DNA from: an uncultured Bacillota bacterium
GTDB lineage: Bacteria; Bacillota; Clostridia; Oscillospirales; Oscillospiraceae
Length of the DNA stretch: 37,096 nucleotides
Reading direction: 5' to 3'
Assembly: GCA_947172355.1 (NCBI GenBank)
Contig: CAMWBA010000011.1
Location: 1-37,096, forward strand
This document shows, piece after piece, positions 863 to 19,630 of this stretch. Numbering within the stretch: the first letter of the stretch is position 1; each line of letters begins with the position of its first letter. A model generated the notes under the pieces. It had not been told where the DNA came from. It worked only from the letters and a program-made list of their open reading frames with translations, and ran no database searches. The position numbers and the translations under genes are program-made.

Positions 863-898
863 TCACAGGTTAATACTTCACGGTTCCCGTCACGGTGA
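863..898. repeat. 36-bp shared tail element, copy 1
   Basis: This is one of four copies of the same sequence. In its coding frame on the minus strand it reads ...TVTGTVKY-stop plus a few downstream bases. The other copies are at 2595-2630, 4294-4326 (33 bp) and 6281-6316. Only the copy at 6281 is the natural 3' end of an intact gene. Here the upstream reading frame enters in a different frame and stops inside the element. Confidence 0.85.
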
Positions 899-1075
899 TA
901 GATTGATCGGTTCCATAGAAAGCATTTTTCCGGTGGTCAGGTCCACGGTACAAAGGGTGTCGCCCCATTCTATGGTACTCATGGAACCATCGGGCTCCTC
1001 AATGGGAGAGATAAAGGTCAGCAGGGTCCCATCTTCGGAAAACTGAATGTCACGGGGGTTGAAATAGGGGTGCCA
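863..1075. repeat. 3' homology block, copy 1 (identical to 2595-2807)
   Basis: These 213 bases match 2595-2807 with no difference visible by eye, at an offset of 1732. Similarity then continues with scattered changes for roughly another 140 bases. The block covers the C-terminal coding region of the two tandem paralogues and the shared tail element. Confidence 0.85.
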
Positions 1076-2578
1076 ACAGGCGGGCAGCAGAGAACCAAAA
1101 TCAATATAGGTTCCGTCATTGCGGTAGAAGATAGCACCATATTGGGCTCCTGTGCGGGGATTGGGGGTTCGATACACAGCCAGTGTGCCAAGCTCACTGG
1201 GGTATTCATCCAAATGAGCGCCGGCCCATTCCAGGTCGGCAATATATGAGCGCATGCCATCTAATGTGGTTTTATCATGCTTATTTGTAGTTGTGTTATC
1301 ATCAACAGAGGCAATAGAACAGTTTTCTGAATTGTTATAGGCAATGGAGACATTTTCTACATTAATAGGGTTAGAATAGCCAAATGTAATATTATTAGGT
1401 CTACAAACAAATGTAAAATATGTGTAGTCGCCCATTACCGTAAAAGGCTTTGTTCCTTCCGCAGTGTATAGTTTGGAATCCTTAAACATAACCGGTTTAA
1501 AATATGCTCCATTCGTCGATTGGGTATATTTGCCGTTTGCTTCAACGCAAGACATCGCTTGAAGGAAAGTTAGAGACTTTTGGGTATTCGAGATAAGCCC
1601 AGGGGCGTTATAAACCAGATAGAAAATGTTTGAACCATCCGATTCCATACTCATAGCGACCTGATTGGTATTCACAGCCAGTTGAATTGTTACCGTTTTC
1701 CTTTCCAACGTTATTGTGTTGCTGTTTGGGTCGTAATTCGATGCCTTAACCTTTGGAAAACTTTCCACATAAAATTCATCTTTTTTATCCCGTGAAACAT
1801 TATAGTTATAGTTGTAGAAAGCATATAACCCCTTGTTACGCCCTGAATCGCTTGGATTAGCCATTAGACCAAAATCGAGAGTTGCTGTGTCAGATTTGGC
1901 CACAAGGAATAGATACATGATACAATCCTGTGTGCCATTGTGCAGAGTGGTTCCCTGAAAGGCCACCGTTGTGTCGCACTGATAACATTTTTGCCATGAA
2001 TAAGAGTATTTGTAGAAATAGGAACCAGCGTTATACTCATACGCATGATTCAAAGCCGTTTGATCTGGTTTATTGGTAGTATAATAGTATTTATAATTGT
2101 TAGCAATGACTTCCGTTTGTGGCGCAATAGAAGAGTCAATAGAGATATCGGAAGAAGTGGAACCAACCATTCTGCCCTCTCTGTCTAGGCGAATCATTAT
2201 ATTGGGACTATCTGGAGCAACATCAGAGATTCCTAATACCTTAAAGCCCAGGAACTCCCCCTCAGAGAGAGATTCAAACAGGCTCTTACCGACCTCGGGG
2301 TCGGGGTTGGACAGGCTGTCCAGGGTGGCCTGGTCATAGCCCATTGCCCTGGCTTCGGCAACCTTAAACCCCTCAATGACAGTTTCCTCCCCATACTTCT
2401 CCAAGTACTGGTCAAAGGTAATGTACTCCTGGGGACTGCTGGCAGAGAGCGAGGCCGATTCAACTGATAATGCGCTGTCAGAGAGTGGGGCCGGTTCAAC
2501 TGACAATGCGCTGATAGAACACAGCATCGCAATGCTCAAAATACCGGCTAACAGCGCGGCAAACGGTCTTTTCATCAT
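890..2578 (-). CDS. Secreted protein of tandem paralogue family, copy A (562 aa)
   Basis: The protein starts with a signal peptide (MMKRPFAALLAGILSIAMLCS, basic then hydrophobic). Residues ~50-108 follow as a probably helical region containing YITFDQYLEKYGEE. A long, mostly beta-rich core rich in Y, N, S and T comes next. The ~100-residue C-terminal region contains YRTPNPRTG, CWHPYFNPRDIQF and DLTTGK. I do not recognise a domain. Its N-terminal ~108 and C-terminal ~120 residues are nearly identical to the next gene (2622-4277), while the core is only moderately similar. GGAGG lies 3 bases before the first ATG and 6 before the second, so translation may start at the second Met. The stop lies inside the shared tail element, in a frame different from that element's own gene. 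It is the last gene of the array and probably acts outside the cell. Confidence 0.85.
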   Translation of the reverse strand: MMKRPFAALLAGILSIAMLCSISALSVEPAPLSDSALSVESASLSASSPQEYITFDQYLEKYGEETVIEGFKVAEARAMGYDQATLDSLSNPDPEVGKSLFESLSEGEFLGFKVLGISDVAPDSPNIMIRLDREGRMVGSTSSDISIDSSIAPQTEVIANNYKYYYTTNKPDQTALNHAYEYNAGSYFYKYSYSWQKCYQCDTTVAFQGTTLHNGTQDCIMYLFLVAKSDTATLDFGLMANPSDSGRNKGLYAFYNYNYNVSRDKKDEFYVESFPKVKASNYDPNSNTITLERKTVTIQLAVNTNQVAMSMESDGSNIFYLVYNAPGLISNTQKSLTFLQAMSCVEANGKYTQSTNGAYFKPVMFKDSKLYTAEGTKPFTVMGDYTYFTFVCRPNNITFGYSNPINVENVSIAYNNSENCSIASVDDNTTTNKHDKTTLDGMRSYIADLEWAGAHLDEYPSELGTLAVYRTPNPRTGAQYGAIFYRNDGTYIDFGSLLPACWHPYFNPRDIQFSEDGTLLTFISPIEEPDGSMSTIEWGDTLCTVDLTTGKMLSMEPINLSP

Positions 2579-2627
2579 GGTCCTCCTTTCTGCGTCACAG
2601 GTTAATACTTCACGGTTCCCGTCACGG
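2239..2627. repeat. 5' homology block, copy 1 (identical to 3938-4326)
   Basis: These 389 bases match 3938-4326 with no difference visible by eye, at an offset of 1699. The block spans the N-terminal coding region, the ribosome binding site and the upstream junction, including the 33-36-bp tail element. It ends exactly where the upstream sequence stops being the same gene. Confidence 0.88.
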
Positions 2628-2630
2628 TGA
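2595..2630. repeat. 36-bp shared tail element, copy 2
   Basis: This copy lies between the two tandem paralogues. It contributes the last residues and stop codon of the 551-aa protein, out of the VTGTVKY frame. Confidence 0.85.
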
Positions 2631-4277
2631 TAGATTGATCGGTTCCATAGAAAGCATTTTTCCGGTGGTCAGGTCCACGGTACAAAGGGTGTCGCCCCAT
2701 TCTATGGTACTCATGGAACCATCGGGCTCCTCAATGGGAGAGATAAAGGTCAGCAGGGTCCCATCTTCGGAAAACTGAATGTCACGGGGGTTGAAATAGG
2801 GGTGCCAGCAGGCGGGCAGCAGAGAATAAAAATCAATATAGGTTCCGTCGGTGCGATAGAAGATGGCATTATATTTGCCTCCTGTGCGGGGATTGGGGGT
2901 CCGATACACAGCCAGCGTGCCAAGCTCACTGGGGTATTCGTCCATATGGGCTCCGATACTCTCCATATCGGCAATATAGGCACGCAGTTCATTCAGCGGC
3001 TCTCTTGACACAGGGGGCGGCGTCTGTATCGTTGTTAAATCTCTGTTTGGCTGGTTTAATGCGTAGAGGGGATTGTTGTAGGCGATGGAAACCGTTTGTG
3101 TATTGGCAGAATCACTATAGGAATAACTGATATTCCGGGGTTTCGCGAGAAATGTAAAGTACGTATAGGGACCCATGGTGGTAAAGGGGTAGGATTTTTG
3201 GGTGTCGTAGAGTATTGTATTGCTGAATTTGACATTTTTAAAGTAAGAACCGTTGGTTGGAAGGGTTTCTTTACCGTTTGCCTCGACACAAGACATGGCT
3301 TGAACAAAGGTCAACGGTTTGCCGGACTCAAATGTTAGTCCAGGAAGATTGCAAATACGATAAAATAGAATTGAGCCGCCAGACTCTAAACTCATTGCCA
3401 CCTGGCCGGTGCCGACACTTAGTTTGATGGTTACCGTCTTACGCTCCAGGGTCATAGTCTTGTCTTTAATGCTGTAAGACGATGCTAAAACTTTTGGGTA
3501 TGGTTCAACCGCCATATCACCCTCACTTGGGTTCCAAAAGGCATACAAACCCTTGTTTCGATTATCAGCGCCAGGAGCAGCCATTAATCCGAAATCGATA
3601 GTTCCCTGATCGGACTGGGCGTTGAGAAATATGTACATATTGGAATCCTGGGTTCCACAGCCCAGAGTCGTGTTATCAAAGGTTACCGTTGTATCACACT
3701 GGTAAAAACCTTGCCAGGAATAAGAATATTTGTAAAAATATGAACCAAAATTTGGTTCATATGCCCTGTTCAGTGCAGTTGGGTCAGGCTTGCTGTTCGA
3801 GTAATAGTATTCATAAAAATCCGTTTTTTCCATTGCGGTTGGGGTAATAAAAAAATCATTGTTCAATACACGCTCTTCCCGGTCCAGATAAATCACCATG
3901 TTAGGCGCGTCCGGCTCCGTGTCCGAGACCCCCAACACCTTAAAGCCCAGGAACTCCCCCTCAGAGAGAGATTCAAACAGGCTCTTACCGACCTCGGGGT
4001 CGGGGTTGGACAGGCTGTCCAGGGTGGCCTGGTCATAGCCCATTGCCCTGGCTTCGGCAACCTTAAACCCCTCAATGACAGTTTCCTCCCCATACTTCTC
4101 CAAGTACTGGTCAAAGGTAATGTACTCCTGGGGACTGCTGGCAGAGAGCGAGGCCGATTCAACTGATAATGCGCTGTCAGAGAGTGGGGCCGGTTCAACT
4201 GACAATGCGCTGATAGAACACAGCATCGCAATGCTCAAAATACCGGCTAACAGCGCGGCAAACGGTCTTTTCATCAT
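2622..4277 (-). CDS. Secreted protein of tandem paralogue family, copy B (551 aa)
   Basis: It has the same architecture as the 562-aa neighbour: signal peptide MMKRPFAALLAGILSIAMLC, helical N-terminal region, divergent beta-rich core (residues ~110-430) and conserved C-terminus ending MEPINLSP. The open frame extends upstream to 4349, but the start is set at 4277 because the signal peptide begins there and GGAGG precedes it. The upstream extension is only another frame of the tail element. Core motifs aligning with copy A include SYFYKYSYSWQ, YQCDTTV, QAMSCVEANGK and TYFTF, so the cores are homologous but much more diverged than the ends. Function unknown. It is likely exported and co-transcribed with its neighbours. 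Confidence 0.85.
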   Translation of the reverse strand: MMKRPFAALLAGILSIAMLCSISALSVEPAPLSDSALSVESASLSASSPQEYITFDQYLEKYGEETVIEGFKVAEARAMGYDQATLDSLSNPDPEVGKSLFESLSEGEFLGFKVLGVSDTEPDAPNMVIYLDREERVLNNDFFITPTAMEKTDFYEYYYSNSKPDPTALNRAYEPNFGSYFYKYSYSWQGFYQCDTTVTFDNTTLGCGTQDSNMYIFLNAQSDQGTIDFGLMAAPGADNRNKGLYAFWNPSEGDMAVEPYPKVLASSYSIKDKTMTLERKTVTIKLSVGTGQVAMSLESGGSILFYRICNLPGLTFESGKPLTFVQAMSCVEANGKETLPTNGSYFKNVKFSNTILYDTQKSYPFTTMGPYTYFTFLAKPRNISYSYSDSANTQTVSIAYNNPLYALNQPNRDLTTIQTPPPVSREPLNELRAYIADMESIGAHMDEYPSELGTLAVYRTPNPRTGGKYNAIFYRTDGTYIDFYSLLPACWHPYFNPRDIQFSEDGTLLTFISPIEEPDGSMSTIEWGDTLCTVDLTTGKMLSMEPINLSP

Positions 4278-4326
4278 GGTCCTCCTTTCTGCGTCACAGG
4301 TTAATACTTCACGGTTCCCGTCACGG
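3938..4326. repeat. 5' homology block, copy 2 (identical to 2239-2627)
   Basis: Partner of the block at 2239-2627. It covers the signal peptide, helical region and upstream junction of the 551-aa gene. Near-zero divergence next to a diverged core suggests recent duplication or gene conversion of the ends. Confidence 0.88.
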
Positions 4327-4372
4327 GGTTGAAATAGGGGCACCAGCAAACGGGCAGCCGGGACACGCTCTA
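4294..4372 (-). pseudogene. Remnant of a third paralogue fused in frame to the shared tail
   Basis: Directly after the TAG stop of the 251-aa gene (4370-4372), and in the same frame, the minus strand reads ~23 sense codons ending PYFNPVTGTVKY-stop. The first part matches the CWHPYFNPR segment near the C-terminus of the 551- and 562-aa proteins. The second part is the tail of the 131-aa protein. The two are joined next to a short CCGTGAC match present at both parent sites. This looks like a deletion that collapsed a third paralogue to a stub, or a former C-terminal extension of the 251-aa gene now cut off by TAG. Confidence 0.6.
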
Positions 4373-18236: not shown

Positions 18237-18956
<720 letters not shown>

Positions 18957-19002
18957 ACAGGCATATTGGCAGAAATGTGTACTTTCTTGTAAATATGCCT
19001 GT
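18957..19002. repeat. 11-bp inverted repeat after the recombinase stop
   Basis: ACAGGCATATT (18957-18967) and AATATGCCTGT (18992-19002) are perfect complements around a 24-base loop that contains most of the left arm of the larger repeat. No T-run follows, so it is not an obvious terminator; it may be part of a recombinase-binding site. Confidence 0.5.
18970..18993. repeat. Left arm of 24-bp inverted repeat (candidate recombination site)
   Basis: It contains GTGTACTTTCTTGTAAA at 18977-18993, a perfect 17-bp match to the complement of 19080-19096. Five further bases, CAGAA, match beyond a 2-base mismatch, giving 22 of 24. It begins 13 bases after the recombinase stop codon. Confidence 0.75.
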
Positions 19003-19022
19003 CATCAAACTAATAGTATCTT

Positions 19023-19052
19023 ATCATAAAAACATTTGTATTTCAATGCCAA
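19023..19052 (-). promoter_or_regulatory. Promoter-like sequence inside the inverted-repeat-bounded segment
   Basis: On the minus strand, TTGGCA (19047-19052) and TATGAT (19023-19028) are separated by 18 bases. As drawn it points towards the 3' end of the recombinase gene. If the segment between the inverted repeats were flipped, it would point into the AP2-domain gene. Confidence 0.5.
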
Positions 19053-19079
19053 GTCATATTATTTCTGGAACAAATTCCT

Positions 19080-19103
19080 TTTACAAGAAAGTACACCATT
19101 CTG
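19080..19103. repeat. Right arm of 24-bp inverted repeat (candidate recombination site)
   Basis: TTTACAAGAAAGTACAC at 19080-19096 is the perfect complement of the left arm, and 19099-19103 continues the match. It ends 30 bases before the AP2-domain gene start. Confidence 0.75.
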
Positions 19104-19133
19104 TATATCCATGTACGGAGCGGGGAATAACCT

Positions 19134-19595
19134 GTGGAGAGACATTCCAGAAAGAAACTAAATTTAATTGGGCAAACGTATGGCCACCTTCTTGTAACAG
19201 GACCTGCCCCCAATATCGGAAATCGGACCGCTTGGCATTGCCAGTGTGACTGCGGGCGTAAGACGGTGGTCAAAACCTGCCATCTGCGCAGCGGCCACAC
19301 CACCAGCTGCGGACAGTGTTTGAATGGGGGCGTTTCCAGTTTGACCTATATAGACGGCACTTGTGTTGAAATGCTCCGGGCTAAAACGGTGCGGCGGAAC
19401 AACACCAGCGGTGTCCCTGGGGTGGACTGGCGGGCCTCAAAAGGGGTATGGCGCGCTTCCATCTGCTTCAAGGGCAAACGGCAATATCTGGGTAGCTTTT
19501 CCAAATTTGAGGATGCGGTGAAAGCCCGGAAGCAGGCGGAAGAGCGCCTGCACGACCAGTTCTTGGCCGAGTTCGATCGGACGGCTCCCCACTAA
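19134..19595 (+). CDS. AP2-domain DNA-binding protein (153 aa)
   Basis: The start is GTG 19134, preceded by CGGAGCGGGG. KKLNLIGQTYGHLLVTGPAP is the N-terminal motif common in phage-type HNH/AP2 proteins. CQCDCGRKTVV...SCGQC places four Cys in two CxC/CxxC-like pairs (residues ~36-62), a possible zinc ribbon. Residues ~89-140 (NNTSGVPGVDWRASKGVWRASICFKGKRQYLGSFSKFEDAVKAR) form an AP2 domain. It is normally linked to mobile-element endonucleases, but no HNH nuclease motif is visible here. The gene could be a regulator or a remnant of a homing-type element. It is paired with the recombinase and cut off from lepA by a strong terminator. Confidence 0.85.
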   Translation: MERHSRKKLNLIGQTYGHLLVTGPAPNIGNRTAWHCQCDCGRKTVVKTCHLRSGHTTSCGQCLNGGVSSLTYIDGTCVEMLRAKTVRRNNTSGVPGVDWRASKGVWRASICFKGKRQYLGSFSKFEDAVKARKQAEERLHDQFLAEFDRTAPH

Positions 19596-19630
19596 ACACT
19601 GGGCTCCACGATCCCGTGGAGCCCAGTGTT
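19595..19630. terminator. Bidirectional terminator between the AP2 gene and lepA
   Basis: A perfect 16-bp stem (19595-19610 with 19615-19630) has a 4-base loop and reaches into the lepA stop codon. TTATTCTT follows on the plus strand, and the AP2 stop codon overlaps its left edge. Confidence 0.88.

What the first reader, a model, noticed from the sequence alone, without database searches (positions are those of the whole stretch)
18970..19103. Candidate invertible promoter next to a serine recombinase
Seen: a 24-bp inverted repeat (17 bp perfect, 22 of 24 overall) begins 13 bases after the recombinase stop and encloses 86 bases. Inside lies TTGGCA-N18-TATGAT pointing away from the AP2-domain gene. 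Known: Hin/Pin-type recombinases invert segments bounded by ~26-bp inverted sites. Inference: flipping would direct the promoter into the AP2-domain gene, giving ON/OFF control; the reference orientation would be OFF.
Basis: partly seen in the sequence, partly recalled or inferred. Interest (0 to 1): 0.75.

Follow-up and report, generated by a model that had tools for sequence, protein, structure and literature searches.

The report
Invertible promoter beside its recombinase
A short stretch of DNA next to a DNA-flipping enzyme very probably flips back and forth to switch a neighbouring DNA-binding-protein gene on and off; related gut bacteria carry the same kind of switch in both positions in front of many different genes.

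Summary
Each arm belongs to an imperfectly symmetric site with a GT core, the two cores in opposite orientation, as inversion requires. 83 of 180 distinct relatives have such a site pair just downstream of the recombinase gene; 0 of 180 reversed-sequence controls do. Segments flipped relative to flanks occur in several sets of relatives, including modules with the same AP2 cargo. On a 61-recombinase tree, orientation needs at least 14 changes and is not clustered. The conserved promoter is TTGAAA-N17-TAAGAT, 37 nt from the left core, pointing away from AP2, so the sequenced form is probably OFF. A hairpin over the left site would weaken on flipping. Prior art: a 2026 paper reports ~120-bp inversions immediately downstream of hin at csrA-tldR loci of Flavonifractor plautii. 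The wider range of cargo, AP2 included, was not found in seven literature searches. Not shown: flipping within this strain, transcription, and what the AP2 protein does.

The parts
18345..18956 (+). serine recombinase gene (203 aa), proposed invertase
   Evidence: Pfam Resolvase 1.6e-28; PHROG 'DNA invertase' 1.1e-48; R10, S12, D69, R70, R73 invariant in 13 aligned sequences, window included (their catalytic role is recalled)
18966..18993 (+). left recombination site: TTGGCAGAAATGT-GT-ACTTTCTTGTAAA
   Evidence: same layout in 83 of 180 relatives, window included
19080..19107 (-). right recombination site: TTTACAAGAAAGT-AC-ACCATTCTGTATA (core opposite to the left site)
18979..19094 (.). proposed invertible segment, core to core (114 bp centre to centre)
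   Evidence: inversion itself inferred from relatives
19018..19046 (-). conserved promoter TTGAAA-N17-TAAGAT with extended TG, pointing toward the recombinase (OFF for AP2)
18957..19002 (+). hairpin over the left site; outer stem 18957-18967/18992-19002; weaker if the segment is flipped (-19.3 versus -8.6 kcal/mol)
   Evidence: the stem is kept with different bases in L005 and L006
19134..19595 (+). cargo gene: small zinc-ribbon-like + AP2-domain protein (153 aa, GTG start), related to DNA-binding parts of HNH homing endonucleases
   Evidence: Pfam AP2 E 2e-4, below the curated cut-off; PHROG HNH-endonuclease families; model resembles AP2 domains, with weak E-values
19595..19630 (+). strong terminator-like hairpin after the cargo gene

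Best explanation
A self-contained phase-variation switch. The recombinase binds the two inverted 28-bp sites directly downstream of its own gene, exchanges strands at the GT/AC cores and flips the 114-bp segment. In the sequenced orientation (OFF) the segment's promoter points back toward the recombinase gene and a hairpin forms over the left site. In the flipped orientation (ON) transcription would start about 72 nt upstream of the AP2 start codon (arithmetic from the -10 position), and the hairpin would be weakened, so read-through from the recombinase gene could also reach AP2. Shown by sequence: sites, core polarity, promoter position, hairpin, wide conservation of the layout, and relatives with the segment in each orientation. 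Inferred: that this copy is active, that this enzyme catalyses the flip, ON/OFF transcription, a terminator or antisense role for hairpin and leftward promoter, and a DNA-binding regulatory role for AP2.
For: Arms beyond chance in the window. Site pair in 83 of 180 distinct relatives (window included) versus 0 of 180 reversed controls at score 30 or more, a threshold chosen after seeing both lists; at 26 it is 85 versus 5. Half-site consensus near TTTACAAAAA(A/G)GT in the 60 loci with a GT core. Flipped segments: of 20 pairs picked after BLAST, 13 aligned better inverted and 7 better direct; e.g. L016/L064 inverted z 17.3 versus direct 1.6, L027/L172 8.5 versus 0.1, L009/L082 7.1 versus 0.8. 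With AP2 cargo: L005/L048 5.8 versus 0.5, L006/L048 4.3 versus 0.2, L005/L074 4.8 versus -1.0, L006/L074 5.2 versus 0.3. Fewest orientation changes on a 61-recombinase tree 14, of which starred branches force 8; not clustered (379 of 500 shuffles as low for OFF, 392 for ON). 53 of 83 segments hold a promoter scoring 10.5 or more versus 3.9 expected; its -10 end lies a median 38 nt from the site it faces in 39 left-pointing and 38.5 nt in 10 right-pointing loci. Hairpin direction follows promoter direction 21 to 2 versus 2 to 5, Fisher p 0.0027, in the 30 of 83 loci passing both thresholds. PMC13418256 (section 11 read) reports ~120-bp inversions immediately downstream of hin at Flavonifractor plautii loci related to csrA-tldR.
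Against: No reads: within-strain flipping was not seen. 97 of 180 relatives had no pair by my finder, 7 of 23 with at least 75% identity among them. L007 keeps the recombinase without a detected pair. The window itself compares only weakly with the flipped AP2 loci (L048 1.9 versus 0.0; L074 1.1 versus -1.2); its OFF label rests on direct alignment with L005/L006 and the shared promoter position. L048 has the opposite core polarity (left AC) and its -10 end is 48 nt from the site rather than 37, so inversion alone does not relate it to the window; L074's sites were picked by eye and missed by the finder. The window's two best opposed promoter scores differ by only 1.0. 14 of 39 left-pointing and 4 of 10 right-pointing promoters lie outside 36-41 nt. 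The looser hairpin test was weak (left-pointing 32 to 9, right-pointing 6 to 6; Spearman 0.25, p 0.02). 12 of 61 ON/OFF labels were set by hand, and the tree's bootstrap had not settled.
Confidence: 0.87

Rival explanations
1. A decayed or locked switch: sites and recombinase remain, but this copy no longer flips and AP2 is permanently off or weakly expressed.
For: L007 has a close recombinase and no detected site pair; the two outer half-sites of the window match at only 8 of 13 positions; no second orientation can be seen without reads.
Against: Inner half-sites match 13 of 13; the recombinase frame is intact and R10, S12, D69, R70, R73 are conserved; a module with the same kind of cargo aligns in the other orientation in L048.
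Confidence: 0.1
2. The paired arms are binding sites or an RNA hairpin by which the recombinase represses its own transcription, with no inversion.
For: The left site is a strong hairpin directly after the stop codon (z -5.0), with its stem kept by changed bases in L005 and L006.
Against: Segments flipped relative to flanks in relatives, at least 14 orientation changes on the tree, opposed GT cores.
Confidence: 0.02
3. The arms are ends of a small transposable element, not a switch.
For: The recombinase-AP2 module as a whole has different neighbours in relatives and is absent between the flanking genes in L261.
Against: In 83 loci the arms lie just after the recombinase gene (median 22 nt from stop to left core); in the window they enclose only 86 nt and no exact further copy of the 17-bp arm was found in the own genome, which is 77% complete.
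Confidence: 0.01

Closest known systems
hin-linked ~120-bp inversions at csrA-tldR loci of Flavonifractor plautii and relatives (PMC13418256; section 11 and search passages read)
   Same: recombinase gene, inversion immediately downstream, promoter inside, cargo beyond; L013, L027, L030 (CsrA) and the TnpB-like loci here look like this system
   Different: cargo is AP2 rather than csrA-tldR; promoter resembles the general sigma type rather than the flagellar (FliA) type
cwpV switch of C. difficile (PMC2784873; search passages read)
   Same: a hairpin predicted at the left repeat in the OFF orientation only
   Different: tyrosine recombinase RecV encoded elsewhere; promoter upstream of the switch; the window's hairpin has no T-run
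Salmonella Hin/hix flagellar switch (recalled; mentioned in PMC13418256 and PMC2784873)
   Same: a serine recombinase flips a promoter between inverted sites
   Different: hin lies within the inverted DNA (PMC2784873 passage); here the gene lies outside; a Fis enhancer was not tested
Mpi-controlled promoters of Bacteroides (recalled)
   Same: serine recombinase and invertible promoters
   Different: Mpi acts on many promoters (recalled); here no further exact arm was found in the own genome; Mpi model score 40.3 against a cut-off of 272

Membership tests
small serine recombinases (resolvase/invertase) | resolvase catalytic domain with conserved Ser/Arg/Asp residues | tested here: met
   (residue roles recalled)
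small serine recombinases (resolvase/invertase) | dyad site of about 28 bp with a 2-bp core (recalled) | tested here: met
   binding and cleavage not tested
invertible promoters (invertons) | inverted sites of opposite polarity enclosing a promoter | tested here: met
invertible promoters (invertons) | both orientations found | tested here: inconclusive
   met between relatives; not testable within this strain without reads
Hin/Gin DNA invertases | Fis-bound recombinational enhancer | not tested
   no enhancer was searched for
Hin/Gin DNA invertases | nearest solved relative is a DNA invertase of this group | tested here: not met
   Sin 8.2e-31 ranks above the DNA-invertase chains 4m6f (6.9e-18) and 3uj3 (9.5e-18)
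Mpi family | NCBIfam PRK13413 score at or above cut-off | tested here: not met
   40.3 bits against 272
cwpV-type terminator switch | orientation-dependent hairpin | tested here: met
   -19.3 versus -8.6 kcal/mol if flipped
cwpV-type terminator switch | poly-U tract after the hairpin (intrinsic terminator) | tested here: not met
   1 T in the 8 nt after the stem in the window

The most novel reading that the evidence does not exclude
The window holds one copy of a portable cassette class spread through gut Clostridia and relatives: one serine invertase plus its own flip segment of roughly 100-150 bp, placed in front of unrelated cargo (AP2 regulators, CsrA, nuclease-dead TnpB-like proteins, restriction-modification enzymes, surface proteins).
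Probability: 0.4. Interest if true: 0.7.

Novelty: new member of a known kind. Interest (0 to 1): 0.55.

Why it matters
It would bring an AP2-domain regulator, a domain better known from plants and apicomplexans (recalled), under bacterial phase variation, and it points to a common, compact switch format in gut Clostridia whose cargo includes predicted defence, flagellar-regulatory and surface genes. Because enzyme, sites and promoter sit within about 800 bp, the class is easy to test and to look for in read data.

Tried and rejected
Searched the own genome for further copies of the 17-bp arm: 2 exact hits (this pair) and 8 with 3 mismatches, against 7 hits of the reversed control, so a many-target system is not supported; the genome is 77% complete. 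Rfam gathering scan of the window: 0 matches. The hairpin as a canonical intrinsic terminator was rejected for the window (1 T in the 8 nt after the stem). A first, generic arm finder on the 80 genome-contig loci was too noisy. A stricter core-based finder gave 41 of 74 loci, window included; the one used gave 83 of 180. The promoter-hairpin correlation over all 83 loci was weak. The viral-contig scan gave no close copy of the window's recombinase (at most 73% identity among 80 loci). PMC11892184 (inverton profiling; passages only) links a mostly Clostridia inverton group to tyrosine-type recombinases; 'serine recombinase' occurs 0 times in its main text. PMC5903667 (passages only) likewise held 0 occurrences. 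Answered literature searches; none listed an AP2-linked or general version, but most subscription papers are not held, the 2019 invertible-promoter paper (PMC6543533) among them.

Full report
Observation. No other pair in the window reaches 21 of 24 at offsets 40-400, apart from the same pair shifted by one base, and the best in 20 shuffled windows was 20.

Anatomy. Each arm is part of a 28-bp imperfectly symmetric site. Left: TTGGCAGAAATGT-GT-ACTTTCTTGTAAA. Right: TTTACAAGAAAGT-AC-ACCATTCTGTATA. The cores GT and AC are the same dinucleotide read in opposite directions, so exchange between them would invert the 114-bp segment. The two inner halves are identical over 13 nt, the two outer halves at 8 of 13. 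The recombinase (18345-18956) is a small serine recombinase: Pfam Resolvase 1.6e-28, PHROG 'DNA invertase' 1.1e-48; the best solved relative is Sin at 8.2e-31, ahead of DNA-invertase chains at 6.9e-18 and 9.5e-18.

Promoter. The named TTGGCA-N18-TATGAT exists. The overlapping TTGAAA-N17-TAAGAT is what relatives keep in place: 37 nt from the left core in the window, L005 and L006, 38 nt in L088. Across 83 segments, 53 hold a promoter scoring 10.5 or more against 3.9 expected in shuffles. In the 49 with a clear direction, the -10 end is a median 38 nt from the site it faces in 39 left-pointing loci and 38.5 nt in 10 right-pointing loci. That mirror-image spacing is what one cassette seen in two orientations should give; 14 of the 39 and 4 of the 10 lie outside 36-41 nt. 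The window's own opposed scores, 10.5 left and 9.5 right, are too close for my threshold, so its OFF call rests on the conserved promoter and on direct alignment with L005 and L006.

Hairpin. The left site sits in a hairpin (18957-19002, -19.3 kcal/mol, z -5.0) that would weaken to -8.6 if the segment flipped. L005 and L006 keep the stem with other bases. In the 30 of 83 loci that passed both thresholds, left-pointing promoters go with a stronger left hairpin in the observed orientation 21 to 2, and right-pointing ones with a stronger hairpin in the flipped orientation 5 to 2 (Fisher p 0.0027). The looser test gave 32 to 9 and 6 to 6, Spearman 0.25, p 0.02. 10 of 31 strong left hairpins have at least 4 T in the 8 nt after the arm; this may undercount, since in L016 the arm as traced runs past its T-run. 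The window has 1, so a terminator role here is a guess.

Family. Recombinase relatives came from searches of 60 relatives and 64 genus genomes, own genome included in both, from 80 loci of genome contigs and 80 of viral contigs. 223 loci had a recombinase match, 193 were distinct, and 180 had at least 200 nt downstream; 83 of these have a site pair just downstream, against 0 of 180 reversed controls at the chosen score. By identity to the window: 16 of 23 at 75% or more, 25 of 40 at 70-75, 21 of 34 at 65-70, 8 of 21 at 60-65, 9 of 29 at 55-60, 4 of 33 below. Cores: GT 60, AT 11, AC 7, AG 3, TG 1, CT 1; AT cores are palindromic and do not fix a direction.

Both orientations. BLAST showed flanks in register with the segment reversed for L016/L064, L013/L064, L027 and L030 against L172, L009/L082, L130/L137 and L100/L108. 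Global alignment without the half-sites, for 20 pairs picked after that, favoured inversion in 13 (11 with z above 4) and direct orientation in 7; L130/L137 was not among them. With AP2 cargo, window, L005 and L006 align directly; L048 and L074 align inverted with L005 and L006. The window against L048 and L074 points the same way but weakly (1.9 versus 0.0, 1.1 versus -1.2). L048's core polarity is swapped, and L074's sites were found by eye, not by the finder. On a tree of 61 recombinases labelled ON (15) or OFF (46), at least 14 changes are needed, 8 forced by starred branches, and the labels are no more clustered than shuffled ones. 12 of the 61 labels were set by hand from the alignments above; the bootstrap had not settled; 22 of the 83 loci were left out for lack of a clear direction or were replaced by these labels only where named.

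Mobility. In L261 the small gene left of the module lies 153 bp from lepA, whereas the window has 1508 bp there, so the module looks like an insert of about 1.36 kb. This is 1 of 29 non-window loci; the other 28 showed no lepA hit in the fetched stretch. In L075 and L078 the module also abuts lepA with another left neighbour; L048, L074 and L088 carry recombinase plus AP2 with no lepA in the fetched stretch.

Cargo. For 81 of the 83 loci a downstream frame was picked by a simple rule; 68 of the 81 were scanned: BspA-type repeats 5, CsrA 4, OrfB/TnpB-like 4, zinc ribbons 4, Eco57I methylase 2, helicase 2, AP2 2, one C5 methylase, one SLH and others. AP2-type cargo by similarity to the window's protein: L001 (the window), L005, L006, L048, L088 and L074. 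The AP2 protein has a zinc-ribbon-like N-terminus (read by eye) and an AP2-like C-terminus. The model (mean pLDDT 78, pTM 0.48) has no PDB match at E 0.001 or better; the top rows include AP2 domains of P. falciparum (3igm, 0.035) and Arabidopsis TEM1 (0.07 to 0.30; 44 columns at about 1 A in four of five rows). PHROG places both halves in HNH-endonuclease families, but the Pfam scan matched no HNH domain, so a DNA-binding regulator is the likeliest role (inference).

Known work. [quoted passage not shown] That is the same architecture, so the kind is known. cwpV (PMC2784873, passages) is the precedent for an orientation-dependent hairpin, with a distant tyrosine recombinase. I found no report of the AP2 version or of the wider cargo range; most subscription papers are outside that library.

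Verdict. A known kind of device, supported by good comparative evidence, in a new setting. What remains is to see it flip in one strain and to learn what AP2 controls.

Noticed in passing
L016, L064, L060, L022 (cargo gene): TnpB-like proteins whose RuvC acidic residues appear replaced (motifs recalled, read by eye; L022 is cut before the third motif), behind the same kind of switch; a flagellar-type (SigD/FliA-like) promoter was found in the segments of L016, L064 and L060. Probably the TldR class of PMC13418256; L016 (OFF) and L064 (ON) are the cleanest flipped pair.
   Followed up: partly
L013, L027, L030, L087 (cargo gene): CsrA genes behind the same kind of switch; L013, L027 and L030 have a SigD/FliA-like promoter in the segment, L087 showed none.
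   Followed up: partly
L100, L109, L111, L132, L108, L130 (cargo gene): Frames that look like restriction-modification, methylase or helicase genes (assigned to loci by eye; family counts), suggesting phase-variable defence.
   Followed up: no
L048, L074, L088 downstream of AP2: A frame with a signal-peptide-like start follows the AP2 gene in these three loci (by eye), but not in the window, where lepA follows.
   Followed up: no
L007: Recombinase 86% identical to the window's, no site pair found, and a promoter-like TTGAAT-N17-TATACT (by eye) pointing at an unrelated downstream gene: possibly a locked switch.
   Followed up: partly
890-4349: Two adjacent minus-strand genes for exported-looking proteins with nearly identical N-terminal and C-terminal parts: a tandem duplication.
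   Followed up: no
L004 (own genome contig C10): A second AP2 paralogue (about 66% identical) without this recombinase nearby in the fetched stretch, downstream of an integrase-like reading frame (by eye).
   Followed up: no
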